A DNA stretch of 41,730 nucleotides from Streptomycetaceae bacterium (GTDB lineage Bacteria > Actinomycetota > Actinomycetes > Streptomycetales > Streptomycetaceae): contig JAFAUH010000045.1 in assembly GCA_019243445.1 (NCBI GenBank), positions 1-41,730 on the forward strand, in the 5' to 3' direction. Below, piece by piece: positions 5,201-37,400 of the stretch. The notes beneath the pieces were generated by a model. That model was given only the letters and a program-made list of their open reading frames with translations, made no database searches and had not been told where the DNA came from. A program made the translations under genes and the position numbers. The first letter of the stretch is position 1; every line of letters starts with the position of its first letter.

Positions 5201-5885
5201 TCTCCCGACCTTCGGCGAAATCCACCGCATTCATCCCGAACGCGGCCACCCCCATCCCGAACCCGATCACACCGAGCGGACCATCCACCACCGACGACAG
5301 CAAAATCAGCACCATTCCGGTGATCTCCAGGGCCATCTCAACGCCCTTCCAGATCCGCTCGGACAGACTCGGCACCTCGATCGGCTGCGATACCATCTCC
5401 GAGGCATCCCGCAGCACCTGTTCCATCGTCCGCGCCGCGGCATTCACCTGGCCCACCTGGTCTTGGACCTGCTGCTTGAGCCCCGCCAGCTTCGGATCCC
5501 CCGCCGTCAACTCCGCCGCCTGCGACACCACTCCGGCCGCCGTCTGCTGTCCCTCCATCAGCGCCAGCCGGTATTCGGCCACCGCCTCTCCGGCCAGCGA
5601 AAACGCCCGTGCGAGGTTGTAGACAAACGTCTTCAGCCGCCCCGAGATCACCCCCCGCAGCACATTCGCCGTGTCCCCCCCGAACCCCTCCGAGGACGCC
5701 GACGCAAACGCATCCAACCCCTGGGACACCGACCACGCCGTATCCCGCAGATACGTGAAATCGTCGATGATCCCCTGCAATACTCGCGGATCACCCGGCA
5801 ATGGAGCCCCGTCGAACCCCAACCTCGACCAATCAGCGTCCAGGAAAACGGACATCACAGGATCACAAACTTGACGATGCGTCAC
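2226..5885 (-). CDS. 1,219-residue protein: type VII-like secretion domain, HTH-like pair, giant-protein repeat module
   Basis: Residues 17-115 (DADWSRLGFDGAPLPGDP, then a helical segment with SEGFGG) resemble the T7SS signal or WXG100-like domain that opens many large actinobacterial exported proteins. A coiled region (130-165) precedes a hydrophobic stretch at 184-222. Residues 230-430 are helical, and 430-660 look disordered and proline-rich. Two helix-turn-helix-like segments follow (about 665-712 and 732-782, the second with HFDRSEATVRNWLYQW). From about 840 to 1020 the protein aligns with a repeat module of the giant protein at 22-41 kb: DGFTVTDLANG, TEGEPMTAW, GRVALRP, RLMIDP, PYWQIDYA and AVRLDETGR occur in the same order. 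The remainder is beta-rich and ends without a recognisable toxin domain. The GTG at 5885 gives the longest frame; the ATG at 5855 (MSVFLDADW) is an equally good start, and neither has a good ribosome site. Function unknown. Confidence 0.75.
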   Translation of the reverse strand: MTHRQVCDPVMSVFLDADWSRLGFDGAPLPGDPRVLQGIIDDFTYLRDTAWSVSQGLDAFASASSEGFGGDTANVLRGVISGRLKTFVYNLARAFSLAGEAVAEYRLALMEGQQTAAGVVSQAAELTAGDPKLAGLKQQVQDQVGQVNAAARTMEQVLRDASEMVSQPIEVPSLSERIWKGVEMALEITGMVLILLSSVVDGPLGVIGFGMGVAAFGMNAVDFAEGREKWQSLALASLGFLLPETRGLFTAGELGAATRALLGNTGHAAAKMANVLSSPVKFAEFMAQTGASTWRGVVALPGMLTKTPEVLGSAWESASAAVGRDVGRVMKWYPDLVAGVGAHTAYGLTNLGRAGAALLTPMTFGEMATLGFREAWAAMRRRAQLTNLTNAARDFRAGWKGYGQRAARAGLEVLGMLHAMQGLRPRGRPGPKDFLPDAAAGAKTGPGVLLPGPVVWTKDATGKLDEPLLAAERGWPVRVRPDGFSTVGWPDESSTPAFSRLWLPGQADRQAAQIPDWLRVAGLGAGRRPGLLETLFRPASFMNTAAGVPVRTQGVPRLEIAPPLRQLMWPGADPSLTGTSSTSDTLAHSGGLTAGQDSAEGLPTPHLEVSQILELLRAGAPDPSAAHLPAPHLTQETESPSRVISAGNSEQTLAPAQPRTVARHPYLRLLSLIESEGYDVGKVADRLGATPGELVDTLTGQLLSADLSEALDVAAQRTGEAAAGSGSGVLPEHFGALLALYKNSGHDRARLASHFDRSEATVRNWLYQWPESGRTVFETLDGHFGLGLVEPVPLRGEGIGELLDGATVWAIRHPQTGRDFEILGDTRLSIKPVGGAGQPSDGFTVTDLANGVFFFRVGLENTTSAATLVHADLTLTGTESVTGAGEAQRVAVLRLPLEGRNRAPRLLDTEGEPMTAWPANAMRDGRVALRPHDAPLASPVRLMIDPADSRVLKQTLCAHADACGPYWQIDYAAEPASAVRLDETGRPTGQAASVHFGPDGMLRLVAESGEAVLQRPLTDALHGRWQPTNDFRTLELPGSGGALLRFSTGGERVVDFRDAELVDADGHFLPGARLLAHKERSGFTVRLPVPDTDEMAAWHLDNYGALREREVPVTGPDLPAAVRISIVYAHPRKPSYEVRFCRDGSSTPTRRFSAGPLPQELAAQHPDGIALTFTPTGWTFHLDGMGQIIGDDGTPAPTTTGANSLPPAHHARAARLRLA

Positions 5886-9041: not shown

Positions 9042-9064
9042 ACGGGGTGAGCCTTGTCACCCGT
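9042..9064 (+). terminator. Small hairpin after the LysR gene
   Basis: ACGGGGTGA (9042-9050) can pair with TCACCCGT (9057-9064) with one bulged G and a six-base loop. It lies between the LysR stop and the next start at 9084. It is short, and close to the downstream ribosome site, so it might instead act on translation. Confidence 0.35.
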
Positions 9065-9083
9065 GGCCAGCGGAGGTAGGCCC

Positions 9084-9965
9084 TTGTCCAGACGCCGCAG
9101 GAGCTACTCCGGTGAGAGTGCAAAGTGGCCTCAAGCAGGTGACTTCGCGCATCTCTTCGCCAGCCGAACTCGCACACCGGTCCGGATGTTCCTGCCTGAG
9201 CATCGTTTCTGGCAGAGCCTGGCCGGCGCTGCCGGTGTCCTGGCTGTGCTGACCGGGATCACGGTGGGAATCTCCCAACTGCACCTGAGCAGGGGCGTGA
9301 ACGACAGCCAGTTGCGGACGCTCGGCCTGACTGCAGCACCGGATCAGCAGTCGCAGTCATCCCAAGGGAACGTCGTGCAGCCGCCGGTCGGCGGTGGCCC
9401 CGATGGTGGATCCCCGCAGCCGGCGAGCAGCCAGCCGCCACGCAGTAATGCGGCACCGCCACCGCTTGCCGCGTCGTCGCCACCGACTACGTCATTGGCA
9501 CCCCCAGCAGCCAGTACAACCCAGCACTACACCATTGGGCAGACCAACAACGCACCGCCTGCGAACACGCCCCCTGCACCGCCCACCCCCTCCCTGTCGG
9601 TCCGCAAGGACGTCTACACGGGTGGCAACGGGTCCTGGGCGGAGGACATGGTCGCCCTCACTTCCAACGTGCCGCTCAGCGGACTCAAAATCACTGTGCG
9701 TGTGGCCCAGACCGGCGGCGTGGCCAGTACGGGCACCTGGACCTCACTGTCAGGAAAGGTGAACATCAGCGTGGTTGCCGACAGCAGCGCGGTCAACTAC
9801 CTGCTGACCTTGAATCCCGGCGTCACGCTCCCCCCGGGAACCTATGCCCTCGAAGCCCAGTACAACCACGCCACGGGCAGCCGGGACACCCAGAACGATC
9901 TGTACACCATCACAGCGACCACGGCCGGCTCCGGCACCTCCCAGAGCGCGAACGGCCACTTCTGA
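9084..9965 (+). CDS. Type II membrane protein with proline-rich stalk and extracellular beta-domain
   Basis: Starts at TTG (9084), chosen because GGAGG at 9072-9076 is correctly spaced; 293 residues. The N-terminal 45 residues are cytoplasmic and contain GDFAHLFASRTRTPVRMFLP. One membrane segment follows (FWQSLAGAAGVLAVLTGITV). About 100 residues of Pro/Ser/Gln/Ala-rich stalk come next, and then a C-terminal domain of roughly 110 residues of alternating beta pattern (SVRKDVYTGGNGSW to LYTITATTAG). The gene at 18,724-19,599 is a clear paralogue: GDFAALFARKARLPLRSFMP, the same anchor position and stalk, and the same C-terminal ending (TYTVTATS). That paralogue is linked to the giant-protein genes, so this protein probably belongs to the same machinery. 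I do not recognise the extracellular fold; ligand binding or cell-wall contact is only a guess. Confidence 0.75.
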   Translation: MSRRRRSYSGESAKWPQAGDFAHLFASRTRTPVRMFLPEHRFWQSLAGAAGVLAVLTGITVGISQLHLSRGVNDSQLRTLGLTAAPDQQSQSSQGNVVQPPVGGGPDGGSPQPASSQPPRSNAAPPPLAASSPPTTSLAPPAASTTQHYTIGQTNNAPPANTPPAPPTPSLSVRKDVYTGGNGSWAEDMVALTSNVPLSGLKITVRVAQTGGVASTGTWTSLSGKVNISVVADSSAVNYLLTLNPGVTLPPGTYALEAQYNHATGSRDTQNDLYTITATTAGSGTSQSANGHF

Positions 9966-18723: not shown

Positions 18724-19599
18724 TCATTGCATGACGCCGTGCAGGTTCTGGCTCACCCCGGAGGTGCTGGTGGCCGTCACGGTGTATGTGTCGCCGCTCG
18801 TGTCGTGCCCCCCATTGCCGACCCAGTAGTCGGCTCCGGACGTGTAGTCCCTTGCGCCAAGGGTGACGCCCGGTCTGGTGGTCCACGTCCAGTCGAACGA
18901 GCCGTCCGCCTCCGTCTGCTGGCTGAGAGTGCCCTGGCTGTTGTTGATGGTGCTGAATGTACGGTTGCCGGGCTTCACGTTGCCCGTAACCCGCATCTGT
19001 ACAGTCAGCGAGCTCAGCGGCACCGTGGTTCGTACCATGATGTTCTGGAGCTCGTACTTGCCGTCTCCCGAGTGTGGTGTGCCGAGCAACGACAGGAAGT
19101 CCGTCACCGGGGCAACCTGCGTCGCGTGCTGTTGGGCGTTCGCCGGTGCCGGGGCGGGGGCCGGGGCCGGGGGATTCGGCTTGGGCGGAGACTGAGGCGT
19201 CGGGCTGGGACTCGGGCTGGGGCTCGGGCTGGGCGAGGGGCTGGGGGAAGAGGCGACGGGTGGTTGCTGGAGGGAAGCCGGCAACTGGGCCACGGAGGCA
19301 GGAGGCCGGGAGGCGGCTATCTTCTGCGGCGTCCCCTGCTGGTCGACGAGCTCGTAGAGACCGGACAGCCCGTACCCGGCACCGCCCAGCACCACCACCC
19401 TCGCGGCAGCCGCCACGACCGCCATCCACACCCGCCGCTCCGGCATGAAGCTGCGCAGCGGCAGGCGGGCCTTGCGGGCGAAGAGGGCGGCGAAGTCACC
19501 CGGTGAGTTCTGGGACGAGAAGCCGTGCGACTCTTCCCCTTCGGGATCCTCCGCGGGTCGGAAGCGGCCTTCGGTGAGCTGCCGGGCTTGGTTGAACAT
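18724..19599 (-). CDS. Type II membrane protein with Pro/Ser stalk, linked to the AAA+ ATPase gene
   Basis: 291 residues from an ATG with GGAGG ten bases upstream, which itself lies in the 24-bp gap behind the ATPase gene; the two are surely co-transcribed. The cytoplasmic N-terminus (1-58) ends GDFAALFARKARLPLRSFMP. One membrane segment follows (VWMAVVAAAARVVVLGGAGY), then a stalk rich in Pro, Ser and Ala with an SPSPSP run and a PAPAPAPA run. The extracellular C-terminal domain is about 120 residues (VRTTVPLSSLTVQMRVTGNV to TYTVTATSTSGVS). It is a paralogue of the protein at 9084-9965 over its whole length. I propose that it anchors or presents the product of the upstream giant gene at the cell surface; this is inferred from gene order only. 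Confidence 0.8.
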   Translation of the reverse strand: MFNQARQLTEGRFRPAEDPEGEESHGFSSQNSPGDFAALFARKARLPLRSFMPERRVWMAVVAAAARVVVLGGAGYGLSGLYELVDQQGTPQKIAASRPPASVAQLPASLQQPPVASSPSPSPSPSPSPSPSPTPQSPPKPNPPAPAPAPAPANAQQHATQVAPVTDFLSLLGTPHSGDGKYELQNIMVRTTVPLSSLTVQMRVTGNVKPGNRTFSTINNSQGTLSQQTEADGSFDWTWTTRPGVTLGARDYTSGADYWVGNGGHDTSGDTYTVTATSTSGVSQNLHGVMQ

Positions 19600-19623: not shown

Positions 19624-22323
19624 TCAGGCCGGGAGATCCTCGGGCCTGAGGGTGACCAGGTCGGACGCCTGCGGGTCGGCCAGCTCGGCAACTCGGTATG
19701 CCTGCCGTTCCGTCATGGTCTGGAAGATCTGGCGTGCGGTGCGGCCGTTGCCGAACCGCCGGTCCCTGGGCAGCATGTCGAAGTACGAAGACAAGGACCC
19801 ACGGGTGGATTCGGTCAGCTCGTACTGGTGCTTGCTCGCGTGGTGCTCAACGATCCTGACCAGCTCCGACGTCCCGTAATTCTCGAAGAGCAGCGTGCGG
19901 CTGAAGCGCGAGGCCAGACCTGGGTTGGACTGGACGAAGCGCTCCATCTCCTCCGGGTAGCCCGCAACAATCACCACGAACTGGTCGCGGAAGTCTTCCA
20001 TCATCTTCAGCAAAGTGGCAATCGCCTCGTGGCCGAAGTCGTTGCCGGCGAAGGCGGGGGCCAGGGAGTACGCCTCGTCGATGAAAAGTACGCCGCCCAT
20101 CGCCTGCTGGATGACCTTCTGGGTTTTCGGGCCGGTGTGGCCGACGTACTGGCCGACCAGGTCCGAGCGGTCCGTCTCCACCAGGTGCCCGCGCTCCAGC
20201 AGCCCGACTGCGCGCAGGATCCGCCCGTACAGCCGGGCCACCGTGGTCTTGCCGGTGCCGGGGTTGCCGGTGAAGACCAGATGCCTGCTGAGCGGCGGGG
20301 CGGCCAGGCCCGACTCCTCACGGCGGCGCACCATCTGCATCAGTTTGACAAGCGACGACACATCGTGCTTGACCCGCTCCAGGCCGATCAGGTCGTCCAA
20401 CTCGGCGAGCAGCTCCTCCAGCGTCTCGTCCGGGTCAGCCTCCGTCTCTCGTGCCTTGGGCGCATCCGCGTCCTCGGGCGAAGGAGCGCCGCCCTCACTC
20501 ATCGGCTTCGCCTTCAGCAGGCTGGAACCCGACGACGGCAGCGCGGCCTTCTTCACACCGCGGGAGATGCAGTCCTCCAGGACCGGCTTGGCGCCCTCCG
20601 CCAGCGCCACATCCTCCTCGGCGTCGCGCACCACGCACCCGCGCAGGACGGGGACGGATCTCGCGGACAGGTGCAGCGCGGGGTAGGCGTGCCCTTCTCC
20701 CTCGGCGTTTCCCGGCTCTGAGAAGACGCAGTCCTGGTAGGTGCCGCGCGCATCCTCGCCGACGAAGAGGGAGTTCATGCCGGTGCGGCTGACGCTGACA
20801 CCGGTCAGCCGGGGATCGGCACCCTTGGCCACGACCACGCCCGACCCGGCCGCGTCAAGCACCATGCAATCCTCGAACGTCGCGGTGGACCGTTCCATCA
20901 CCACCACGCCCGCGGTCCCCTGCCCGCTGATCCGGCACTCGCGCAGCACCGGCGCCGCGCCGGGGCCGCAGGTCACCCCGGCCCGTTCGGAGCCGGCTAT
21001 CCGGCACTCCTGGAGCAGTACCGTGCCACTGGACTCCATGGTGACGCCGAAGACGCCGCGCAGTACGGACAGGCCGCGTACTCGGGCTGCCGCCTCGTTG
21101 TCCACATGCAGGCCGGACAGGCCGCAGTCGGACACCTGGCCGCCCTCGACGGTGATCTCGGCCCGCTCGGTGGCCCGGATGCCGTGCTCGCGGGTGGCGC
21201 CAATGCGACAGTCGGTGATCTGCACCCGTGCCTGCCCGCAGGCGTGCACGGCACTGAACTTGCTGTCGGTCAAGGCGCTCGCGGACAGCTGCACCGCGGA
21301 GTCCTCTCCCGCCAGCAGGCCGTTCTCGCGGGTGCCGCGCACCGTGCTTTCCCGGGCCGTGAGCTGTGCGCTGCCCCGGCCCACCAGGCCGGCGCCGTGC
21401 TGGCGGCTGATGTGGCTGTCCACGATCTCCACCCGTGCCTCGCCCTCGGCACACACCCCGGCCCCGCCGCCGTCGCGCACCTTGGTCGCCATCAGCAGCA
21501 CATCGCCGGAGCCGGAGGCGGCCACCCCGGCCGTGCCCGAGCGCAGCACCTCGCAGCCGACGAGGCTGATTCCGCCGCCGTCCGCGGAGGTGGGCACGGA
21601 GCCGTCGCTGTGGCCTGCGCGCGACGAACTGCCCAGTACCCGGACGCCCTCGGTGGCCGAGTCCTCCAGGCGGCAGTCGGTCATCAGTACCGCGGCGGTG
21701 TCCTCCACCAGCAGCCCGCTGCGGCCCGCGCCGGTCACCTGGCAGTCCTGGAAGGCCACGGTGGCCCGGCCTCGCACCCGCAGGCCCGAACCGCCCGCCT
21801 TGCGCACCACGACACGGGTCAGCGTGGCGGAGGTGTCGGATCCGATGACGATCCCGGTGCCGTCGACGCTCTCGACGGTGCACTCCTCGAGCACCGCGGA
21901 GCCGGTGCTGTTCAGGTGCACCCCGGCCAGCGTGCCGCCGCTGATCCCGCAGTGGCGCAGCGTGATCGATGCGTCGCCGTCGGCCTCGACCCGGCCGCCG
22001 GAGATCTCGCAGCCTTCCATCTCCAGGTCACCTTCGAGCACCGCGACCGCAGGTGCGTTCCCGGCGACGCCGCCGATGAGGGTGAGCCCTTCAACCTGCG
22101 CGCCCGCGGTCCGGACAGTCAGTGCCGGCGTGCCCGCTGCCAGCACTCGGACCGGGCCGTCCTCCGCCACCAGGCGGACCGGCCGATCCAGCACCAACGG
22201 CTCGACGTACTCGCCTTCGGCGATTCTGATCTCGCTGCCGTCTCCGGCAGCGCGCAGGGCCTCCCTGATCGTCCGGTGGGCGCCGCGCCCCTTAGGGGCG
22301 ACCCGGTGCACCGTGGCTGCCAT
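19624..22323 (-). CDS. Right-handed beta-helix fused to CbxX/CfqX (EccA-like) AAA+ ATPase
   Basis: 899 residues from an ATG with GGAG just upstream. Residues 1-585 are a long series of about 22-residue beta-helix coils of the pectate-lyase/PbH1 type, recognisable by repeated patterns such as VEDTAAVLMTDCRLEDSA and VSDCGLSGLHVDNEAAARV. No catalytic lyase residues are evident, so this is a structural or binding solenoid. After a charged linker (about 590-635), the AAA+ domain has Walker A GNPGTGKTT (686-694), Walker B LFIDEA (746-751), the VIVAGYPEEMERF segment and SRF as the likely arginine-finger region. This domain is closest in pattern to CbbX and to EccA of mycobacterial type VII secretion, where the ATPase follows TPR repeats; here the beta-helix takes their place. 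It is encoded 142 bp behind the giant gene and probably handles that protein. Cytosolic, with no membrane segments. Confidence 0.88.
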   Translation of the reverse strand: MAATVHRVAPKGRGAHRTIREALRAAGDGSEIRIAEGEYVEPLVLDRPVRLVAEDGPVRVLAAGTPALTVRTAGAQVEGLTLIGGVAGNAPAVAVLEGDLEMEGCEISGGRVEADGDASITLRHCGISGGTLAGVHLNSTGSAVLEECTVESVDGTGIVIGSDTSATLTRVVVRKAGGSGLRVRGRATVAFQDCQVTGAGRSGLLVEDTAAVLMTDCRLEDSATEGVRVLGSSSRAGHSDGSVPTSADGGGISLVGCEVLRSGTAGVAASGSGDVLLMATKVRDGGGAGVCAEGEARVEIVDSHISRQHGAGLVGRGSAQLTARESTVRGTRENGLLAGEDSAVQLSASALTDSKFSAVHACGQARVQITDCRIGATREHGIRATERAEITVEGGQVSDCGLSGLHVDNEAAARVRGLSVLRGVFGVTMESSGTVLLQECRIAGSERAGVTCGPGAAPVLRECRISGQGTAGVVVMERSTATFEDCMVLDAAGSGVVVAKGADPRLTGVSVSRTGMNSLFVGEDARGTYQDCVFSEPGNAEGEGHAYPALHLSARSVPVLRGCVVRDAEEDVALAEGAKPVLEDCISRGVKKAALPSSGSSLLKAKPMSEGGAPSPEDADAPKARETEADPDETLEELLAELDDLIGLERVKHDVSSLVKLMQMVRRREESGLAAPPLSRHLVFTGNPGTGKTTVARLYGRILRAVGLLERGHLVETDRSDLVGQYVGHTGPKTQKVIQQAMGGVLFIDEAYSLAPAFAGNDFGHEAIATLLKMMEDFRDQFVVIVAGYPEEMERFVQSNPGLASRFSRTLLFENYGTSELVRIVEHHASKHQYELTESTRGSLSSYFDMLPRDRRFGNGRTARQIFQTMTERQAYRVAELADPQASDLVTLRPEDLPA

Positions 22324-22465: not shown

Positions 22466-25400
22466 TTACACCCGGTCCGGTTCGCCTCCGGAAGCTCCGC
22501 CGGACCATACGCCCCTTCCAGAGCTTTCGTCGACCTTCCGGAACAGCATGGGCAGAACACCGCCCAGGGCGTGGGTACGGTCCTCAACCCGGCGCCCGGT
22601 CTCCGGGTTGAGCAGAATCACATTCAGCCCAGGTCCGGTCGCCAGCACCACCGCCACTTGGTCGTCGCGGAGCCGCATCACCCACACGTCGGTCAGCTGG
22701 GCACCGTCCGTGCCGACCACCCGCGGCTCGTCCGCCCGGCGGCCGGTCCCGACCCGCAGATAGCCGCGCCGCTCGCTCGGGGAATCCAGCGGCAAGTCCC
22801 GGAAGACCAGGGCGGCTCCGGCTCCGTAGTGGCGCCGGATCCCGGTGGCAGGCTCGGTCACGGTGAACCCGCCCCGGAGTTCGGGAGCACGCTCGGCCTC
22901 CGCCTCGGCCAACTCCTCGACGCGGAACAGCCGGGCGTCGGTGCCCTGGAGTTCGCGCCGTATCGTCCTGGATTGTGGGACCAGCCCGCGTCCGGCCTCC
23001 CAGGTCTCTTCCCAGGTGCGTTCCGCGACGATCCGCAGCTTGTCCAGCCGCTCCTCTGCGCTACCGCCGCCGGTCAGTGGCAGATCTTCACGCAGCAGCC
23101 ATCCCTGCTCGTCGAACTGGTACTCCGCGGTGACCCCGTGCGGAGCACCGGGCGTCGCGAACCTTGCCCTCACCCCCCACATGTCGTATGTGTGCTCGGT
23201 CGCCAACTCCAGACGCAGGCTGCTGGTGTGCAGGAGCAGCGGTACGTCGGGGACGATCCCGCTCTCGTTGGGGAAGCGGAAGTCCCGCAGCACAACTAGC
23301 CGGCAGCCGCCCAGGTCCTCGGCTATCCAGCCGAGCAACTGCTTGCCGGCCTCATTGATCACTACGGCGTCTCCGCCCGGACGGCCCAGGATGTGCATGC
23401 CCGTCCGGCCAAGCGGCAGTTCCCACAGCGGCAGGCCCCTGCCGTAGGAAGAGTCGGAGTAGTAGGTGCGGATGCCGGTGGCTCGCTCGGTGATGGTGAA
23501 CACCTCGTCCATGCGGAGATTCATGAAGAACAGCCGCCGGAGATCGTCGTTCTGGCGCAGGTGCGTGGGTACCCGACCGATCTCGAACCGTTCCACCACC
23601 TCTCGCGGCCCGGCCAGCCGATGGGAGAAGGCAGGCAGGGGGGCTGTGTCCCGGGCACTGGGCCGCCACGCGATCACGCGCAGCGAGGGGGGCGGGGCCC
23701 AGGCGTCGCTCGCCGGCACCGGCCACTCCTGCCCGACCAGGTCGGCGTGATCGTCGAAGCGGTACACGGCCATCGCTGCACCCGGTTGGTCGGACAGCCG
23801 GAACCACACCGCCATGCCGTCCGCCATGCCGTCCGCAGGTGTGGCGTGCTCGGCCCGTTCCGCCGGGAGGCTCTCCCAGAGGTCGCCCGCCCTGCGGGGA
23901 GTCGAGCGCGGGGCGGTTCCCCGGCCCGTCAGCCACGGCGGGAGGGTTTCGAGATCGTAGTCTCCGTCTTCGATGAGCTCCGCTCCCAGCGCCGGCCGGT
24001 TGAAAAGGTCCGTCATTCCTCCAGTGGCCGGGTTGAGAACGGTGACATATCCGTCCTTTGACCGGAACGGCGGGCAGTACCAGACCTCCTGCACGCGGTC
24101 AGGGGCGTCGAACTCCTCAACAATCCTGTTGACGCGGTCGACCCTCCAGTAGCGTGTGCCGAAGGCGCCTCCCCTTGTGATCCTTCCGAGCCACGACGTC
24201 GTGTCCCTGCTGCGCTCGGCGATGATCTCTTCCAGCAGCCGGCCGTCGCGGGCGTCGACCACCAGTTGTTCCAAGGGCGCGCCGCCTCCGGCCTCGGTCG
24301 GAACGAGGGCCAGACGCCAGCTGTCGAGCCTTGCCACCCGCAGCTTCACGAGCAGGTTGCCGTCCACATCCACCAGGCGGGGCAGCGTGCCGGGGGGCTG
24401 ACCGGCGTCGTACCGCAGATACCCCAAGCCGGTGGTCTGCCCTTCGTCGCCCACCCAGATATCGCGCGTGACCTGGGAGCCTTCGGCACTGTAGGAGTAG
24501 CGGTGACCGGCCGTGCGGTCGGTGACGACGAAGGCGTGTCCGGAGTCCGACGTGCCCTCCGCGACGGCCGCGACGGCGAACTGCTCCACCCGTTCCCGGT
24601 CACCCGCCAATCGGCACGACCCCGTAGGGGTGACGACTGCCCTGAGTCCTTCCAGTCCTTCCCATCCGTCCGCCGCATGGGCGAGAGGGATCTCGAAGTA
24701 GTCCCTGGCGTCCTCGAACACCTCCTCCTCGCCATGGCCCCTGGTGTTCTCGAACACCTCGAGATATCCCGTAGCAACCGGCTCCTGCGGGTCGATGAGG
24801 TGCGTCGCGACCATCGGCGCGGCACGCATTGCCTGGTCGGCCCGCCTCACCAGGGCACGCTCGGCCTGTGCCCCCGCCACAATGTCCTCCCGGGCGCCAT
24901 CGATGATCACTTGTCCGGTTCCGGAGTCGATCACCATCCAGGTCAGCGGCCGGCCCTCCTCCGGCAAGGAGTTCCAGGCTGTGGGCACAAGGGCCACCCG
25001 GTCACCGTGGAGCCGTTCCACCCGCCACTGTGGGAGCAGCGCGCCGTCCGCGCCGAATACCTGCAGGTCGTCCTCCTCGTTGTCCGCACCCACCTCAACG
25101 CGCAGGTAGCTGCCCTCCGGATTCAGCGGTTCCAGCGGTAGATCCTGGTGGGTGAGATCGCCGTTGGCGGTGTAGTGGCGCCGGATGCCGGTTTCGCGTT
25201 CGGTGAGGGTGAATCCTCCTGGGATTTCGCGCGCGAGCCGGGCGTCCACCACGGCCGTCCAGTCGAGCCGGAACTCGGCCCAGGTGTCCTCCGTCGCGTA
25301 GAGAGCCGGCACCCGCGCCACCAAAGCGTCTGTGTCCCTGGTGAACTCGGCCCCGACAACCGCCTCCTGCGTCGGCTGGCCCGCGGCCATCAGCCGCAGG

Positions 25401-28400
25401 CCGCCGTCCAGGCAGACCCGTGCGCGCCAGGCGCTCTCCTTTGAGCGCGGGACCCGCAGCGGGAACCTGTCTCGTGCCTCGATCGGCAGACGCCACTGCG
25501 TACCTGCGCGCATCATCCACGACGGGGCCCTCAGCTGCTGGGGGAGGATCGGCCGGAGTTCCCAGCGGCCTCCCAGCGCCGGGCGGGAGAACATGACCTG
25601 GCCGTCAGCTTCGCGTATCAGCACATAGAACGCGCCATCCCGCTGACGCCGCACCGGCTCCCACGGCTGCTCCTCCTCCTCGTGGAAGAGTTGGGTGGTG
25701 GTGACGGTCATGGCCCGGCTGCGCTCGTGGTCGTATCGCACATAGGTGGAGCCCCACTGCCTGTTCTCGTCAAGAATGGCGAAGGCCTCCTCCACGAGCG
25801 CGCCGTCGGCGGCACGGACGCGCAGTTGCTCCAGGGGCTGGGCGGAGTCGGCGGGCGGCCACAGCAGGAGATGGCCCTCACCAACCGACGCCTCGCGCCA
25901 GCCGGCCAGCGGATCGCCGAGCGCGTTCACCAGGCGGGGCAGCGTGCCGTCCGGCCGATCCGTGGCAGACCGCAGGTAGCCCAGGCCCATGGCATGCCCC
26001 TGGTCGCCCACCCAGACGTCGCGCAGCACCTCGATGCCCTCGCCGCTGTAGTAGTGGCGGTGACCGGCCGCTATGTCGGTGATGACGAAGGCCGCGCCGG
26101 ACTGCGCCTGTCCTTCCTCGACGGCCGCGATGTTGTACCGGGCGGTCACCGCGGACGTACCCGTCAGCTCGTAGGAGCGCAGCTCCGCCCCGCTCTCCGC
26201 CCAGGTACGGGTCACCACCGTCGTGAGCCCGCTTTGGACAGGGATCTCGTAGGAGATCCACTGGCACTGCGCGTCGAATACCGTCCGCTGCCCCGACTCG
26301 ATGTGCAGCGCCCCATGATGGCCGCCATCGAGAGCCGTGACGGCGAATCCCCCGATCGTCCGGTCGGCCTGCGGTGCCCCTTCTGTGGCCAGGTGCGAGA
26401 ACTCCACCACCGCCTGCTGTGCATCCCCCAGCAGCCGGTACTGAGCGGATGCCCGCAGCACTCGCGCTCCGCTTATGTCCAGCGGCGGGCGCCACCGGGC
26501 GCGGTCGAAGACCACCATGCCCTTGTGCACGAGCAGTCGGGTATTCAGGTCGGGCGAGAGCGCCACGCGCACCTCACGGATCGCCGCGCCGCCCACCTCG
26601 CGGCCTTCGGCGTCGAGCCGCACCGCCTTGAGCGAGCCGTAGTCGATCCTCCAGTATCCGATCACAGCGCCGCCCTCGGCGTGGAGAGTGAGAGTCTCCT
26701 CCACCGGACGTCCGTTGTTTGTGTCGATCTCCATCCGGATCACCGGCCGGCTGTCTTGAGGCAGGTCGTCCCAAGCCGTGGGCACAAGGGCCACCCGGTC
26801 ATCCTCAAGCCGCTCCGCCCGCCAGCTCGCGAGCGGCACACCGTCCGTGCTGATCAGCCGCGCGTCGCCTTCCCGGCCGCCTACGCCGATGCGCACGTAT
26901 GTCTCTGCCTGCAGCGGCAGGGAAAGCGGCAAGTCCCGGTAGAGCAGGACACCATTGTGGTTGTAGTGGCGCCGGATGCCGGTCCGCCACTCGGTGACGG
27001 TGAACCCGCCCGGCAGGTCGCTCAACAATCCGGTGTCCGCCGCGGGAAGCACATCGAGGCGGAACAGCTCAGCTTCCCTGCCCCGGAGCGCTCGCGTCAC
27101 CAGCCGCGCATCGTCGGGAGCCCGGGTGTGTGTGGCGAGGACTCGCACCTCACGCAGGAGCGCGTCCCCGTCCCCACCGCCGGTCAAGGGCAGGTCTTCA
27201 CTGGCCACCCACCCGTCGCTGGTGAACCGGTACTCCGCGATGGCTCCCTCGGGAGCGCCGGGCACAGCAAACCGCGCCGTCCAGCCCTGCGTGTCATAGG
27301 AGAAGCGGGTCGGCACCTCGCTACGCAGCCCGTCGGGGTGAATCTCGTCGGGGTGAACACGGTGCACCAACAGCGGAACGTCGAGCTCCCGCAGCACGAC
27401 CACCCGGCCGCCGCGCAACTCAGCGGTCACCATGCGGTCACCGTTCTTGTCGTAGAAGCCCAAGTCAGCGGCGTTCGCCTCGAGTCGGACGAGCCGAAGT
27501 CCAAGCTCGTCGTCCAGCGGCAGCTCCCGCGCCAGGAGCCTGCCGTTGATCCGGTAGTAGGAGCGGTCGCCGGTTTCCCGGTCGGTGATCGCCAGCACCC
27601 GGCCGGGTGCCTGCCGAAACAGATCTTGAGCCAGGTCGCTCGGGTAGGACTCATCGCCGAGCGGTTCGATCCGCAAGCAGCGCACCACCTCCTGCGGCCC
27701 GACCAACTCGTAGGCCCAGCGCGGGGCGGACGGGCGCATGCCTTGAGCGGGCTGCGGTCGATATGCCGTCGGCGCGGCGCGGCGGGTCATTGCCACCCGC
27801 AGCGCACCAATACCCGCCCTGTCGTGGTGCCACGCCAGCGGCCACTCATGACGAAGCAGCCTCCCCTCCAGGTCGAACCGGAGCTCAGCCTCGGCCGTCT
27901 CCGGCCTGTAGGGCCGCCACGTCCGCACCGTCAGTCCCTGCGCGTCCCAGGCGAACTCGCCCGGCACGCACGTCCTGCACAAGCTCTCGTCCGGATGGAT
28001 CTGCTGCGGAGCACTCCCCGGGTCGCCCGCCGGCAGCCGCAGGCAGTAGTGCTCCTCCAGGGGAACCTCCCGCCACGCCAGGCGGCCGTCGGAGCCGTAG
28101 AAGCTGCGAATGCCGGTGACCGGCTCGATCCGGGTGGTGTCACGGACCAGCTGCCCATGGATGTTGAACCGGTACTCCACGGTGGCGTCGTCCGGGGCAT
28201 CGGGAGCCGCGAACCTCGCTGTCACCCCCTCGGCGTCCCTGGCGAACTCTGTCGGCATCTCGACGCCCCGGCTGTCAGCATGAACGAGCAGTGGGGTGCC
28301 GTTCGGCCCGATCGCGGCCAACCAGCCGCCCTCCAGCTGTTCGGCGGGCAACTCCGCTCCGCGGGCGTCGTAAAGCTGCGCGACGAGCGTGGAGGTATAG

Positions 28401-31400
28401 GTATCGCGCCAAAAGACGAGCCGGACGCCGGGTATACCGCCCAGCGGCTCCTCCCAGGCTGCAGGCGTGACGGGCAGGCGCCAGTAGTAGTAGCGGAGAA
28501 TGCCCGTGGCATGTTCGGTGATCACAAAAAGGTCACTGACAGGCGTGAAGGGAGCGAAGAGCCACGCGCCTACCTCGCTGTGCAAGAACTCCTCCGTCAC
28601 CAGTCCGATCTGGAACCGGTCTACGGCTTGGGGTGGTCCGACCAGCGTGTAGCTCCACTGAGCAGCGGACGGTTCGGCACTGCGCGCCATGACGACCCGC
28701 AGTGAGCCGAGATTCGCGTCGCCATGCCCAACCAGCGGCCACTCCCCAGCCAGTGGCCATTGCGCGCCGACCAACTCCCCCTCCCAGTCGAACCGGAACG
28801 CGGCTCCGGCTTCATCCGGCGCATAGGGCACCGGCACCCGCACCGTCAGACCGTCTTCGTCTCTGGCGAACCAGACCGGCACATCGACCGCTTGTTCGTG
28901 CGCGTCTGTCAAAAACAGATGCACATCCAGCAAAAAGTCGCTGCTCAGGACCGTCAGGTCCAGTCCGTTGTCGGACGCGGCGACCTTGGCATGCCGCTCG
29001 CCGCCGCCCGCAAGCGCCACCCACAGGCGGAACCGCTCTTGTATGGTGAACGCGTCGCCTACCCTGTTGAACGGCAGGCGCCTGGCCGTCCCCTGTCCCT
29101 CCAGCCAGTGCGGAGCTCCGCCGGCGGAGGGAGCGGAGCCCAACGCCTGTCGGGCGGACAGGACTTGACCGTCGCGAACCATCCTGAGGACTTGGCCATC
29201 CGCCTCGTATTGCGCGTTCCCGTTCCCGTTCTCCAGCAGGCGGTGGGAGCTGTCGAAGCGTGAGAGCTCCCCGTTCAGGTGCTGGAACATCTGGAAGCCC
29301 TGAAGCTCCTGTGCCCCGTCGTAGACTGCGATGTACTCCCGCGTCAGCTGGCCGGTGGACGCATCGACCTGCAGGAATTCCGACGGCAAAGCAGAGCTGC
29401 CGGGCGGCTTCAGCATCACCTCACCAGGGAAGTCGGGCGTGCGAACCACACGCCACCCCTCCAGCGGCCTGCCGTCGACATCCACCAGGGTGGGCAGGGT
29501 GCCTTCCGGCTGACGGCTGTCATACCGCAGGTATCCCAGACCCGTGGTCCGGTCCTCGTCGCCGACCCAGAGCTCATGCATGACCTGGGTGCCTGCGGCA
29601 TCGAAGTGGTAGCGGTAACCGGTCGCCACATCGGTGACGACGAGGGAGTATCCGGCCTGTGATGTGCCCTCCGTGACCGCCGCAATATCGAACCGCACCA
29701 CCCGGCCCAGCAGGTCACCTGCCGGCGGGTACGACAGCCAGTGCGAGCGGATCCCCGTACCGCCCTCCGCCCGGGAAGAAGTCACCACCGCAGTGAGCCC
29801 GTCCAAGATGTGCTCCGCGTCAGTGAAACGGACCTCACGAGAGATCCAGCGGTCCTGCGCGTCGAACACCGTGCGCAGCCCCGACGGGTTGTGCAGCGCG
29901 ACATGGCCGCCCCCGTCAACCGGGACCACGGTGAACTCGCCGATCGCGTGAGCGTCCTCCGCCTCCCCGATCTCCCCGACGGCAGGACGGCGCGAGAACC
30001 CCTGCACCGCCTGGCGCGCGTCCTCCAGCTGTGAGTCGTCAGCGGCCTCTCCCGTCCTTGCGTCCTCGATCACCTCAATGCGTTCTGTCGCACTCAGCTC
30101 CGCCGGATCGATGACATGCGTCACAGCTGCCGGCGCGTGCTGGGCCCGCATCATCCGCACCCCAGTCCCCGGCTCAAGCGCCCGCAGCCGCATCCCCGCC
30201 GGCTCCCCCCCCGACAGCGACACCTCACTGACACCCCGCGCTTGGACCGGCCCACCAGCGACGATGTCCCAAGTGGAGCGGTCGAAGATCACCTCACCGT
30301 CGCAGACCAGCAACCGGATACAGAAGTCGCGCGAGACCGCCACCCGTTCGGCCCGCTCCAGCGCGTCGCCGGTGGCGTCGCGCAATACCGCATCACGCGA
30401 AATGTAGTCGATCTCCCAGTACGCACCGGGCGGAACGCTGTCCCTGAGGTGCAGGATCTCCCCCAAAGGCAAGCCGTTCCCTGCGTCGACCACGATCCGG
30501 CTCGGCGGCCGCTCCTCCTTGGGCAGGTCGTCCCAGGCGGTGGGTACCAAAGCCACCCGGTCACCCTCGAGCCGCTGCGCCCGCCAGCCCTCCAACGGGC
30601 CACCACCTGCACCGATCAGCTGCAGCGCATCCTGTCCGCCGCGCATGTCGACACGCAGGTAGCCGCCCAGTCCATCCAGGTCAACTGGTACATCACGGAA
30701 GACCAAGCAATAGTCGATGTCGTAGAAGCGCCGCACACCGGCTGCCGGCTCGGTGAACCGCTGGTCGGGCGCCCGCTCGGAGAGGGTGAACCCACCCAGG
30801 AGGTCTGGCTCGTGCCGGATGTCCGCGCCTGTCACCTCACCCATCTCGAACAGCGGGGAATTCCGGCCGCTCAGCTCCACCAGCTGTATATCGGGCAGAC
30901 CATGCTCGGAATAGAGAATCTCCCTGACCACTCGCACATCCGCCAGGTGCGCCTCCGCGGCCCCGCCGCCGGTCAGCGGTCGCAGCTGGCGTTCACTGAC
31001 CAGCCGCTTGTCCGCGGCGAACCGGAACTCCACCCTGGCCGCGTCCGGCGCGCCAAGCACTCGGTACCACAGCGTCGTACCCCCTTCCGCATCCTGGGAG
31101 AAACGGATCGGCACCTCGAAGCGCCCGGTGTCGGTGTATACGAGCAGCGGGTCGGCCTCTCCCAGCACGATCAGCCGGTCAGCGCCCGCGTCCACCGTGG
31201 GCACACGGTTGTCGATCTCGTCGTAGATTCCGGCGCTGACGCGGGACGAAGAGCCTTCCGCATAGCGTACGAACCGAAAGCCGGGCCCACCGTCCACCAG
31301 CAGCTCCTCCGCCAGACGCCCGCCGTTGAACCCGTAGAAGACGCGTTCGCCGGTCTCGTGATCGACCATCATGAAAACCCGGGCGTTGCCCAGGTCCATC

Positions 31401-34400
31401 GCCAGGTCCGTCCACAGGAATGCTTCGGTGGGTACTTCGATCGGGAGCCGCTCCAGCACGTCGGACGGACCGATCAGCTCGTAGGACCAGTACGGCACCG
31501 ATGGGTCCGCGCTCCGGTCCATGACCACCTGCAACGCGCCGAGGTGTGGCAACTCGATGTCGTCCCGCAGTGGCCACACCTGGCGGACCGGCATTCCCTG
31601 TGCGTCGAACCGGAACTCGGCCCAGGTCCCCTGCGGCGCGTAGGGCGCCGGCAACCTCACCGTCAGCCCCTCTGCGTCCCTGGCCACCTCCATCGGCACA
31701 CAGCAAGAAGTCCCGTCCGCACCGACCACTTGCGGAACAAAGTCCCGGTCGCCCGCGGCCACGCGCAGGAACAGGCCGTCGTCCAGCGGAAGGTCCCGGT
31801 AGACCAAAGCGCCATCGAAGGTGTAGAGGCGCCGCACGCCGGCCGCCAACTCGGTCACGGTGAACTCGTGCCCGAATTCGGCGGTAAGTCCGGCAGCCTC
31901 CTGAGGACCTTCGATGCCGAAGAGTTCAGACTCCTCGCCGTGGAGCTCCAGAATCGGTGCATAGGTGTCCACCTCTTCCATGGTCACCCGCAGGGCGCCG
32001 AGATGCGCCTCCCCGGCATCGCCGCCGGTCAGCGGCAGCTCCACTCGTGTCAGCCACCCGTCCGTGTCGAACCGGTACTCCGCCGTGACCCCCTCAGGAG
32101 CGCCCGGCACCGCGAACCTCGCTGTCGTCCCTTCCTCGTCGCGGGTGTACTCAACCGGCAGTTCCCCTCGCCCGTTTACTACGTCCACCAGCAGCGGTAC
32201 GCCGTCTCCCCGTACCACGGCGAGCCGGCTGCCGCCCAGTTGGGCCGAGAAGAGCCAATTGCCGGACTCGTTGTAGATGGTCGCTGCCTCGTCCAACCCG
32301 CCCGGTCTGCGCAGGAGCCGGAGACGGGGCTCACCGTTGACGGGCAGTTCCTGGCACAGGGACCTGCCGGTGAGCCGGTGGTAGGTGCGGTAGCCGGTGT
32401 CGTGATTAATGATCGTGAATAGTCGGCCCCCTGTACCCGGCACGCTCACACCCAGGTGGCTCTCCTGGAGCTCCTCGGCAAGGGGTTCGACCCGGAACCG
32501 GCGCATCGCCTCCTCCGGCCCGTCCAGCTGGTAGGCCCAGCACGGGACGGACAGGGGCGTGTCCTGGGCGGGCACACGATCCACGGCCAGATCCATGACC
32601 AAACGCAGCGAGTCGAGGCCCGCCATATCAGGGTTCTCCGCCAACGGCCACACCTGGCGGACCGGCATTCCCTCCGTATCGAACCGGAACTCGGCCCAGG
32701 TCCCCTGCGGCGCGTAGGGCGCCGGCACCCGTACCGTCAGACCCTCCGCGTCCCTGGCCACCTCCATCGGCTGGCGCGGGCTGACCGGTGCTCCGCGATC
32801 GGTGACCACCCGTGGCTCGCCCTCCCGACCACCCGCGGCCACGCGCAGGAAGCTGGTCTCACTGAGCAGGCCCTCGCCCAGCGGAATGTCCCGGTAGATC
32901 AGATGACCTTCGGAGGTGTAGAGGCGCCGCAGGCCGGTCGGCAGCTCGGTGATGGAGTAGCCGCTTCCGAACTCGCGCATAAGCCCGGCATCCGTCTGGG
33001 GTGTCTGGAGACCGAACCGTTCCACCGCCTCCCCGTAGAGCACCACGCTCTCTCGAGGCACTTTGGTCACGACCACCCGCAGCGCGCCGAGGTATGCCTC
33101 CGCGGCACCGCCGACCAGCGGCAGATCCATACTCAGCAGCCTCGCATTGGCGTCGAACCGGTACTGAGCCCTGGCTCCGTCCGGAGCACCGGGCATCGGG
33201 AACGTCGCTGTAGCGACCTCGGCATCCCACGAGAAGCTGGTCGGTACCTCGACGCGCAGGCTGTCGGTGTGTACGCACAGCAGGGTGCCGCCACTGCGCA
33301 GCACGGCCAACCGCCGGGGGGCGAACTGCCCGACGTGCCAGCTCAGCTCCCGCTGGCCGCCTAGGTCGTACACCTGCGAGGACACGGCTGAGTTGCCCGC
33401 GAGCCGGAGCAGCACACCGGTTTCCGGCTCCAGCCGCATCTCCCAGGCAAGGACCCTGCCGGGCCAGCGGGAGGAGAAGTAACGGCGATTGCCGGTGGCC
33501 TCTTCGATGACCGCGAACGCGTCAGTACGGGGCCGCCCGAGCCTGTCCCTGGCCAGGTCGCTCTCCCAGAACTCCCCGGTGAGCGGTTCGATCCGGGAGC
33601 GGTCTGCGGCGTCGGACGGGATCAGCTGATAGGCGAAGTGCAGGGCGGACGGGTTCGCGCTCCGGTCCATGATCAGGCGCGGCGGGTCGAGGTCGGCCCC
33701 GCCGCCCCATACCAGCGGCCACTCGCAGCGGACCAGTGTTCCCCGCGTGTCGAACCGGGCCACGGTCCTGGCGTCCTGCGACACGTAGGGCATCGGCACC
33801 CGCACCGTCAACCCCTCGGCATCCCGCACGAACTCGGCGCGGATGCCCAGTGAGTGCCCCTGCTGATCCGTCAGCTCCAAGCCGCGAGTGGCCGCCGAGA
33901 CCCGGACCCACTGCGGGCTTCCGTACTGTCGTGCGATCCATATCCCGTACGCGCCTGGCGTGTCGAACGGCAAGTGCCTGGCCGTCCCCTGGCCCATCAG
34001 CCACTGCGGGGCGGCACCCCACAAAACGTCCGTCCAGTGCTCCAAGTCGAGTCCCAGGACCGGGCGGCGGAAGATGACGTGGCCGTCGTCGGTCAGCAGG
34101 AGGATCGATGAGCCATTCGACTGATGCGATGCTCGCTGCACCGCGATCGGAAGGCCGGATTCTCCCAGGGTCATGGCGCAGCCTTGCCTGTAGTCGTACA
34201 CCAGGTAAGTGCCCTGGAACTCACCCCTCACGTCACGGATGCCGAGGACCACCTCCAGCACTTGACCATTGAGGTGGACGGTCAGGCTCTCGAAGGGCTC
34301 GGCCGACCCGCCGGTCGGTCGCAGCATGAGGCGATCGCCGTCCGCCATCGTGACCTGCCACCCTTCGAGCGGATCGCCGTGCACGTCCACCAGGGAGGGC

Positions 34401-37400
34401 GGTAGGCCGCCCCGCTGACGACTGTCGAACCGCAGATAGCCCAGCCCCGTGGTCTGTCCCTCGTCGCCCACCCAGACATCGGTCATGACGTGGGTGTCCT
34501 CGGCGTCGAAGTGGTAGCGGTAACCGGTCGCCAAGTCGGTGATGACGAAGCCCTGTCCGCCCTGCGCCGACCCCGCCGCCGCGGCGGCCGCGATGTCGAA
34601 CCGCGCCACCAGCTCCGACCCGCCCCGCAGCTCGTACCTGCCGACCTCCGCCCCGTCCCGCGCCCACGAGCGGGTGACGGACACGCTCAGCCCGGCCAGG
34701 CTCTTCGTCGCAGCTGTGAGCGGGATGTCGCGGGAGATCCAGGCGCCGCCGTCGGCGGTCGCGAACCCCTCCACCACGTGTCCCGTGGCATTCAGCTCTT
34801 CTTCCGGGTTCACCAGGTGCGTCTCGGCTATCGGCGGGGGCGCGTCGTTGCGCATCACCGAGGAGCCGGCGACCAGCCGCTCCCACGGCCGGTCGGTGGC
34901 GTTGACCGGCACCAGCGCCACCTCGTGGGGACCCACCCGCTCCGCCCGGAACAGCGCCGACGGCACGCCCTCGGCCGCCAGCCGCTGCGGCGTCACGGAC
35001 GGCTCAAGCATGTCCATGCGCAGCGTGCCCAGACCGTTCTCCAGTGTCAGCTCCCTGGCAACCGGCCTGCCGTCCGCCAGGTAGTGCAGCCGCGCGAGGA
35101 GGTCGGCCGGCTCCTGGGGCGGCGCTGCAAGCAGTTCCGCAGGATGCTCCACCGGCGTGAGGGCCATGCCCACCATCACCTGCGCCCCGGCCGCGGCCGC
35201 CGGCGAAGCCTGCTCCAAGTCGGCCTGGGTGGGCATCCACCACTCGGAACGGGAGAAGATCATCACGCGGTCGCGTATCAGCCCCGCGGTGCCCTGCGAG
35301 GCATCCACGACGGCTTCTTGAATGAGGTCCCCGGCGAGGTTGCGCTGCACGGCCCGCCCGGAGGCGTAGTCGATCCACCAGTACGACTCGGGCAGCAGAG
35401 TGTTTCCCTCGTGGATACCGAGAGTCTCCTCCACCGGACGCCCGGTCTGCGGGTCGAACACGATTCGGGTCAGCGGCGCCCCCTGCCCGCCCAGGGCTTG
35501 TTCGCTCAGGTGGTCCCACAGCGTCGGCCGCAAAAGCACCTGGCCGTTGGCAAACGGCTCCGCCACCCAGCCCGGCAGCGCAGCACCGTCCGCACCGAGC
35601 AGTTGCAGGGCACTGGCCCGTCTGCCCACATTGACCCGCAGATAGCCGTTTCCTCCCGCCTGTATCTGCACCGGCAGCTCCCGGTAGGTCAGGACGCGGT
35701 CAGCACCGTAGCGACGTCGGATGCCAGTCGCCCGTTCGACGACGGTGAAGCCGCCCCGCGCGGCGCTCCCCACAATGCCTTGCGGGACGAGTTGGAACGC
35801 CTGTGCATCGTCGCCGGAGAGCGCCGGGGGCATGGCGAGGCGCACCTCGCGCCCGTCCTCCAGCATGACGATCTGCCACTCGCGCACCATCCGCAGCGAA
35901 CCCAGGTGTTCATCCGCGCCACCGCCACCGGTCAGCGGAAGATCATCCCGGATGATCCGCCCGTGCCTGAAGCGGTACTCCGCCCTGGCTTCCCTCGGCG
36001 CACCGGGCACCCGGAACATCGCCGTCAGAACATGCTGCTCGGGCCTGGTGACGGCGAGCGGGAATTCGACGCGCGGGGTGCTGCCGAGGTGCATGAGCAG
36101 CACATCGGGCGGTGGGCTGAGGGGGGCATCGCCGCTCTCCTGGAAAGGGTTCGCGATCCTGAAGTCCCGCGCCACGACCGCCCGGCCGCCGTCCACGAAC
36201 TCGGCGTGCCAGGCAGGCAACCGCCTGCCATACAGGTCATACACGCGTACCGGGCCATGAACCGCCCCCAGGATACGCAAGCCCGCTCGCTCCACATCCC
36301 TGACCTTCGAGATCAGACCGGCGGTGATGGCGATGTAGTAGCGGCGGATACGGGTAGCAGGTTCGAAGATCGCGAACGCATAGGCACGGTTGTTCCCGAA
36401 GCTGTCCCTGGCCAGGTCGCTGTCCCAGAACTCCAGGGTCGGCGGTTCGATCACGAACCGGCCCGTCGCCTCGGAGGGTCCGATCAGCTCATGAGTCCAG
36501 CGCGGCTCACCGCCGAAGCCTGGGGAGGGATCCCGGTGCAGGGTCACCTGCAGCGAGCCGAGCGGCTCCCAGAACCCGGTGTCCGGCAGCGGCCACATCT
36601 GCCGGATCAGCGTCCCGTTCGCATCGAACCGGTATTCGATAGTGCGTGCGATCGGCCGGTCGGATGTCGGCACCCGCACTGTCAGACCGTCCACGTCCCT
36701 GGTGAACTCGCCCCTCATGGCAACCGGTTGCATGACGGCCCGTTGCCCATGAGGATTGCGCCTGCCCACCACTGCAAAGCCGTCAGCGGTCGGCCTGATA
36801 CTGACCGATTCCAGGTCATGACCCAGGAGTCGGCCCATCTCAAAGGCGCCCTCACGGCCGAACGGCAGCCGCATACCGGTCCCTTGGCGTGTCAGCCACC
36901 CAGGGGCGGATCCCTGGAACCACACTCCCTCCGGCCGCGCCCCGGCCTCCGTCCCCAGTGCCGGGCGGGAGAAGAGGATCATGCCCGAGGAGCTGTAGAC
37001 CGACACCCATCCGTCTGTGAAGCGGCTGACCGTGTTTGCCCAGGAGTCGCGCGTGTTGTAGTAGGCGTCGAGATCATCGGTGATCCCCGTGACCCGGTCG
37101 ACCCTCCAGTAGGTGCCCGCGAACGCCCCCGCCTCGTCGCGCACAGCGATGATCTCCCCCACCAGCTGGCGGTCGGCGCCGATCACCAGCCGTTCCCCCG
37201 GCGCGTCCGAGTGGGCAGTCGGCACCAGCGCCAGCATGTCGTGGTCGAGCGCTTCGACCTGCAGCGTCTCCAGCGGCCTGCCCTGCGCGTCCACCAGGTC
37301 GGGCAGTGCCTCGCCCCGCCGGTTGCCAATGAACCGCAGATAGCCCAGCCCCGTGGTCTGCCCCGGATCGCCCATCCACCGGTCTTCGATCACCATGTCG

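What the first reader, a model, noticed from the sequence alone, without database searches (positions are those of the whole stretch)
19624..22323. Beta-helix solenoid takes the place of TPR repeats in an EccA-like ATPase
Walker A and B and the CbxX/CfqX layout are intact, while the N-terminal 585 residues are about 25 beta-helix coils without catalytic lyase residues. Solenoid-AAA+ pairing fits a substrate-binding chaperone. The beta-helix might recognise the beta-rich repeats of the giant protein by edge-strand pairing; this last step is speculation.
Basis: partly seen in the sequence, partly recalled or inferred. Interest (0 to 1): 0.6.

Follow-up and report, generated by a model that had tools for sequence, protein, structure and literature searches.

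The report
Beta-helix ATPase of type VII secretion
This bacterial gene joins a 25-turn beta-helix to a protein-remodelling motor, and its relatives in Streptomyces and related genera sit beside type VII secretion genes and giant secreted proteins, so it is probably the helper that prepares those giants for export.

Summary
The minus-strand gene 19624-22323 (899 aa) is a confidently modelled right-handed beta-helix (residues 5-590, 23-residue period) joined by a disordered linker to an intact CbxX/CfqX AAA+ domain (635-899).

The architecture is not new: Delerue et al. [quoted passage not shown]

New here is the setting. Full-length orthologues (54-64% identity) lie in a compact type VII secretion locus: an EssC-like ATPase, WXG-type proteins and a sigma factor, then a giant T7SS_signal protein (3,980-5,852 aa), then this ATPase, then a single-TM protein. 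The window's giant very probably has its N-terminus on contig C220, beside an EssC gene.

Twelve of 20 non-core beta-helix ATPases lie within 30 kb of an EccC/EssC gene (about 0.8 expected). None of 12 core-clade beta-helix ATPases or 13 TPR-type EccA-like genes do.

Single-AAA beta-helix loci carry a giant ORF of at least 2,300 aa in 23 of 31 cases, against 0 of 20 T7SS loci without the ATPase.

The chaperone reading is supported by genomics only. Edge-strand pairing with the giant's beta-repeats is not: most partner giants lack those modules.

The parts
19624..22323 (-). PbH-AAA gene, 899 aa: right-handed beta-helix (residues 5-590) + disordered linker (599-628) + CbxX/CfqX AAA+ and lid (635-899)
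20554..22311 (-). Beta-helix solenoid, about 25 coils of about 23 residues (protein residues 5-590)
   Evidence: AlphaFold2 pLDDT mostly above 90; period 23; matches solved beta-helices 8egr, PL6 lyases, GH87, pertactin
19627..20421 (-). AAA+ domain and AAA_lid_6 (residues 635-899): Walker A, Walker B, pore loop YVGHT, R806/R809, sensor 2
22466..41728 (-). Giant protein, at least 6,420 aa, open at the contig edge, with about 350-residue beta-rich internal repeats; directly upstream on the same strand as the ATPase; inferred T7SS cargo
   Evidence: orthologous giants carry an N-terminal T7SS_signal domain
18724..19599 (-). 291-aa protein with one predicted TM segment, Pro-rich linker and C-terminal domain; downstream partner in the operon
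   Evidence: same position and N-terminal motif (F..LFARKAR.PLR.F.P.RR) in orthologous loci
2226..5885 (-). Second, shorter T7SS_signal-type protein (about 1,210 aa) with two giant-type modules
9054..9965 (+). Paralogue of the downstream TM protein
   Evidence: both it and 18724-19599 match the orthologous TM protein G531_21

Best explanation
The gene encodes a cytosolic, probably hexameric AAA+ chaperone or unfoldase of the SpoVK/CbbX/EccA clade that serves a type VII secretion system. The N-terminal beta-helix takes the role that TPR repeats have in EccA: it docks the T7SS cargo or its secretion-signal region. The AAA+ ring then uses ATP and its pore loop to pull on or unfold the cargo, keeping a giant protein export-competent until the EssC-type ATPase moves it across the membrane. 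Shown by sequence: the architecture, an intact ATPase, and operon linkage to a giant T7SS_signal protein and an EssC locus in orthologues. Inferred: hexamer, docking by the beta-helix, unfolding, and timing before EssC.
For: Orthologues G460, G531, G545 (62-63%) and G473 (54%) lie in one conserved locus: EssC-like ATPase, TM protein, sigma factor (not in G473), two WXG-type genes, giant 3,980-5,852 aa, then the ATPase with a 4-nt start/stop overlap, then a TM protein. T7SS_signal PF21725 is found at the N-terminus of the G531 giant and of the own-genome C220 fragment. EssC identity rests on TIGR03928, 558 bits for own contig C220. Proximity to EccC/EssC: 12 of 20 against about 0.8 expected, p about 2e-12; core-clade and TPR types 0 of 25. 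A giant ORF of 2,300 aa or more in 23 of 31 single-AAA loci, 0 of 20 control T7SS loci, 0 of 15 tandem-AAA loci. Named replicates: Streptomyces sp. NBC_00019 (giant CDS of 19,038 bp) and S. coelicoflavus, where the ATPase lies with EccCa, WXG100 genes and a 33,030-bp CDS. Characterised clade members are dedicated chaperones with substrate-recruiting N-domains (PMC10659427). The pore-loop region and all ATPase motifs are intact.
Against: No biochemistry, and no complex model could be run. A core Streptomyces clade with the same fold has no T7SS neighbours. Tandem-AAA forms sit in ESX loci without giants. The link between the window and its own EssC contig C220 rests on synteny and module similarity, not on an overlap. 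The 2,300-aa threshold was chosen after seeing the data, and the loci are not phylogenetically independent.
Confidence: 0.62

Rival explanations
1. It is a T7SS machine accessory, not a cargo chaperone: the beta-helix docks on EssC/EccC, EccD or the downstream TM protein, and the AAA+ ring remodels or recycles the secretion apparatus.
For: The common denominator across loci is the T7SS locus; partner giants differ in their modules, and tandem-AAA forms lie in ESX loci without giants. The last coils and a mid-helix patch are conserved across unrelated giants.
Against: Four-nucleotide overlap with the giant gene in several loci and absence from 20 EccC/EssC loci that lack giants.
Confidence: 0.22
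2. The beta-helix binds the beta-rich repeats of the giant by edge-strand pairing.
For: The giant module is beta-rich in a decent model (pLDDT 85), and the two genes are adjacent.
Against: The module is absent from most giants next to orthologous ATPases (G473, NBC_00019, L046, L048, L095, L040), while beta-helix length stays about 520-640 residues in most of them. The most conserved coils are those next to the AAA domain and a mid-helix patch, not a uniform edge.
Confidence: 0.06
3. It is a carbohydrate- or envelope-related enzyme or enzyme activator: the beta-helix binds or cleaves a polysaccharide, or activates an envelope enzyme as SpoVK does for MurG.
For: GH28, GH13, LacI and PfkB genes lie in the window; the solenoid fold resembles PL6 and GH87 enzymes; conserved H360/E379/H380 in the T7SS clade; the core Streptomyces clade has no T7SS neighbours.
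Against: No lyase or glycosidase family match; no export signal apparent at the N-terminus; the window's GH28 and GH13 genes had no homologue in 40 related loci and the four orthologous T7SS blocks lack such genes.
Confidence: 0.08

Closest known systems
EccA of ESX/T7SSa systems (NCBIfam TIGR03922; PDB 9lur EccA1)
   Same: Cytosolic CbxX/CfqX-type AAA+ with a large N-terminal solenoid, encoded in or beside T7SS loci; proposed substrate chaperone
   Different: Beta-helix instead of TPR; 241 bits against a cut-off of 466.65; AAA+ forms a separate clade
Beta-helix member of the EccA-like clade noted by Delerue et al. 2023 (PMC10659427)
   Same: Same architecture: beta-helix N-terminal domain on an EccA-like AAA+
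   Different: That paper gives one clause and an architecture figure; the linkage to giant T7SS proteins and EssC-like loci is worked out here
CbbX rubisco activase (PDB 3syk, 3zuh)
   Same: Closest solved AAA+ domain, 42-44% identity, same pore loop and arginine-finger region
   Different: No beta-helix; acts on rubisco; no rubisco genes seen here
SpoVK (TIGR02881)
   Same: Best NCBIfam score of the AAA+ domain (268 bits)
   Different: Below the 422.95 cut-off; sporulating Firmicutes only; short N-terminal domain (PMC10659427)
T7SSd of Actinomycetota (PMC11217815)
   Same: EssC-type rather than EccC-type ATPase in an actinobacterium, WXG protein, single-TM protein
   Different: T7SSd was described with five core parts and no AAA+ chaperone or giant cargo; FHA domains of the EssC were not found by Pfam here
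Streptomyces core beta-helix protein, Cluster 1451 (PMC13118837), syntenic with cysK
   Same: Very probably the paralogous core-clade beta-helix AAA+ protein found here beside MOSC, DeoR and cysK genes
   Different: Not linked to T7SS; lacks the T7SS-clade polar patches

Membership tests
EccA (TIGR03922) | Score above curated cut-off 466.65 bits | tested here: not met
   241.3 bits, AAA+ part only
EccA (TIGR03922) | N-terminal TPR domain | tested here: not met
   Residues 5-590 are beta-helix
EccA (TIGR03922) | CbxX/CfqX AAA+ with intact Walker A/B, sensor and arginine fingers | tested here: met
EccA (TIGR03922) | Encoded in a T7SS locus | tested here: met
   Met in orthologues; for the window itself inferred through contig C220
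EccA (TIGR03922) | Recruits T7SS substrates | not testable with these tools
   needs binding or secretion assays
SpoVK (TIGR02881) | Score above 422.95 bits; sporulating Firmicutes | tested here: not met
   267.8 bits; actinobacterial relatives
CbbX (TIGR02880) | Score above 459.25 bits | tested here: not met
   240.2 bits
Beta-helix polysaccharide lyase / glycosidase | Match to a catalytic PL or GH family with its conserved catalytic residues | tested here: not met
   Only generic Beta_helix and NosD matches; no invariant Asp/Lys/Arg/His across 25 homologues. A clade-specific polar patch remains unexplained
T7SSd (PMC11217815) | EssC-like ATPase in an actinobacterium | tested here: met
   TIGR03928 558 bits vs EccCb 342 for own C220, all below curated cut-offs
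T7SSd (PMC11217815) | FHA domains on the EssC-like ATPase | tested here: inconclusive
   Pfam found none in two such proteins, but the N-terminal 280 residues were not modelled
T7SSd (PMC11217815) | TsdI (Ig-like envelope protein) and TsdD kinase | not tested
   not searched for specifically

The most novel reading that the evidence does not exclude
Beta-helix EccA-like ATPases define a class of T7SS, found in both EccC-type and EssC-type loci, that is dedicated to exporting giant proteins of about 2,300 to 11,000 residues, and the beta-helix is the adaptation that lets a CbxX-type motor hold or unfold such cargo.
Probability: 0.35. Interest if true: 0.72.

Novelty: new variant of a known kind. 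Interest (0 to 1): 0.5.

Why it matters
How T7SS handles very large cargo is open, and EccA's own role is still listed as unknown (PMC11217815). Here is a chaperone-like ATPase that tracks with giant T7SS proteins, some carrying a Scabin-like ADP-ribosyltransferase domain, in laboratory-tractable Streptomyces. [quoted passage not shown]

Tried and rejected
The genome-contig scan with the single protein returned only seven distant AAA hits and no close named orthologue, so named orthologues came from the plasmid collection.

No sequence overlap joins the window end to contig C220; the link rests on synteny.

The giant module gave no significant PDB fold match: best Z 5.7 to an Rhs core and about 5.5 to OspA. 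Pfam found no domain in the window's giant.

A first naive self-BLAST of the giant found nothing, probably because of HSP culling; windowed search found the repeats.

A first Fisher count used 24 of 32; merging two pieces of one locus gives 23 of 31. One locus labelled as beta-helix (G044:C397) had no beta-helix and was dropped.

Full report
What is there. The minus-strand ORF 19624-22323 encodes 899 aa with strong coding signal. Pfam finds Beta_helix, AAA and AAA_lid_6. AlphaFold2 on 25 homologues gives a continuous right-handed beta-helix over about 5-590, a disordered linker and a well-folded AAA+ domain, mean pLDDT 89. The 23-residue period is visible in the sequence itself. PDB comparisons match the AAA+ half to CbbX (42-44% identity) and the solenoid to a phage tail protein, PL6 alginate lyases, GH87 and pertactin. 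All ATPase motifs are intact and conserved. No lyase or glycosidase family matches, and no Asp, Lys, Arg or His is invariant in the solenoid across the alignment. T7SS-linked members alone do conserve H360, E379/H380, K516/N517 and D567/D571, which may be a docking patch.

Family. On a tree of 89 AAA+ domains (quick method, so moderate trust), all beta-helix members form one supported clade, apart from true mycobacterial-type EccA and from two TPR-type EccA-like proteins of the same genome. Some tandem-AAA rows looked helix-free only because the loci were cut; fuller stretches show the helix. The clade splits into single-AAA T7SS-linked forms, tandem-AAA forms in ESX loci, and a core Streptomycetaceae form beside MOSC, DeoR and cysK genes, annotated elsewhere as a beta-helix protein syntenic with cysK. 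Orthologues of the window gene are patchy: at the strict threshold used, 33 of 294 genomes of the order have a match.

Neighbourhood. In this window the operon order is giant (at least 6,420 aa, open at the contig edge), ATPase, TM protein. The other neighbours (GH28, LacI, PfkB, GH13) look carbohydrate-related, but GH28 and GH13 have no homologue in 40 other loci and the orthologous T7SS blocks lack all four. In the closest full-length orthologues (G460, G531, G545, G473) the gene sits in a compact T7SS locus: EssC-like ATPase, TM protein, sigma factor (absent from the G473 block), two WXG-type genes, a divergent giant of 3,980-5,852 aa, then the ATPase overlapping it by 4 nt, then the TM protein. 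The same block, with the N-terminus of a giant cut at the contig edge, is on contig C220 of the window's own genome. Giants of three orthologues match both that C220 fragment and the window's giant, so the two contigs very probably carry one gene, although no overlap joins them. The C220 fragment and the G531 giant carry PF21725, a putative T7SS secretion signal.

Statistics. In 21 genomes searched for both, 12 of 20 beta-helix ATPases outside the core clade lie within 30 kb of an EccC/EssC-type gene (about 0.8 expected, p about 2e-12), against 0 of 12 core-clade and 0 of 13 TPR-type genes. An ORF of at least 2,300 aa is present in 23 of 31 single-AAA loci, in 0 of 20 T7SS loci without a CbxX-type gene and in 0 of 15 tandem-AAA loci; most of the eight negatives are cut by the end of the stretch read. 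The threshold was set after looking and the loci share ancestry, so the p-values (4e-8 and 2e-6) are indicative only. Named replicates: Streptomyces sp. NBC_00019 (giant CDS of 19,038 bp overlapping the ATPase) and S. coelicoflavus NBC_00357 (ATPase among EccCa, WXG100 and EsaB/YukD genes, then a 33,030-bp CDS). Giants in the same position in G460 and NBC_00019 carry a Scabin-like domain, which suggests effector cargo; no Pfam domain was found in the window's giant.

Mechanism. The SpoVK/CbbX/EccA clade consists of narrow-target chaperones with variable N-terminal recruiting domains, and a beta-helix among them is already on record (PMC10659427). Combined with the linkage, the best reading is a T7SS cargo chaperone or unfoldase whose beta-helix does the docking. 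Direct pairing of the helix edge with the giant's beta-repeats is unlikely: the module is beta-rich, but most giants beside orthologous ATPases lack it. The shared T7SS_signal region or the machine itself is a better candidate partner. None of this has been tested biochemically.

Verdict. Real and mostly as described; architecture previously noted; the tie to giant T7SS proteins and to an EssC-like locus in Streptomyces and its relatives is the new part. The papers searched here did not describe it, but the library is open-access only.

Noticed in passing
2226-5885 (-): A second, shorter T7SS_signal-type protein (about 1,210 aa) with two of the giant's modules: a small paralogue of the giant.
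   Followed up: partly
9054-9965 (+) and 18724-19599 (-): Two paralogous single-TM proteins sharing a cytoplasmic motif F..LFA...R.P.R.F.P; in relatives the C-terminal part is often a ricin-B lectin (L041).
   Followed up: partly
L087 (G000:C220): Own-genome contig with EssC-like ATPase, WXG-type genes, sigma factor and the N-terminus of a giant cut at the contig edge; very probably adjacent to the window's right end.
   Followed up: yes
L070 (G000:C57) and L129-L134: A TPR-type EccA-like gene is conserved beside hisG in Streptomycetaceae (73-81% identity to the own-genome copy) far from any T7SS locus: a core gene of unknown role.
   Followed up: partly
L156 (S. coelicoflavus NBC_00357 plasmid, 250460-283489): A 33,030-bp CDS (about 11,009 aa) annotated 'hypothetical protein' in an ESX locus with the beta-helix ATPase.
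   Followed up: partly
L141 (G460) and L155 (NBC_00019): Giants in the same position carry a Scabin-like ADP-ribosyltransferase domain (PF22596).
   Followed up: no
L119 (G012): The EssC gene near the sister of the window ATPase is split over several frames, so it is either a pseudogene or a sequencing problem.
   Followed up: no
L034 (Streptomonospora mangrovi): A 1,253-aa protein with three tandem CbxX-type AAA+ domains.
   Followed up: no
622-2262 (+): Histidine phosphatase domain with a long hydrophobic, probably multi-TM C-terminal half in one ORF.
   Followed up: no
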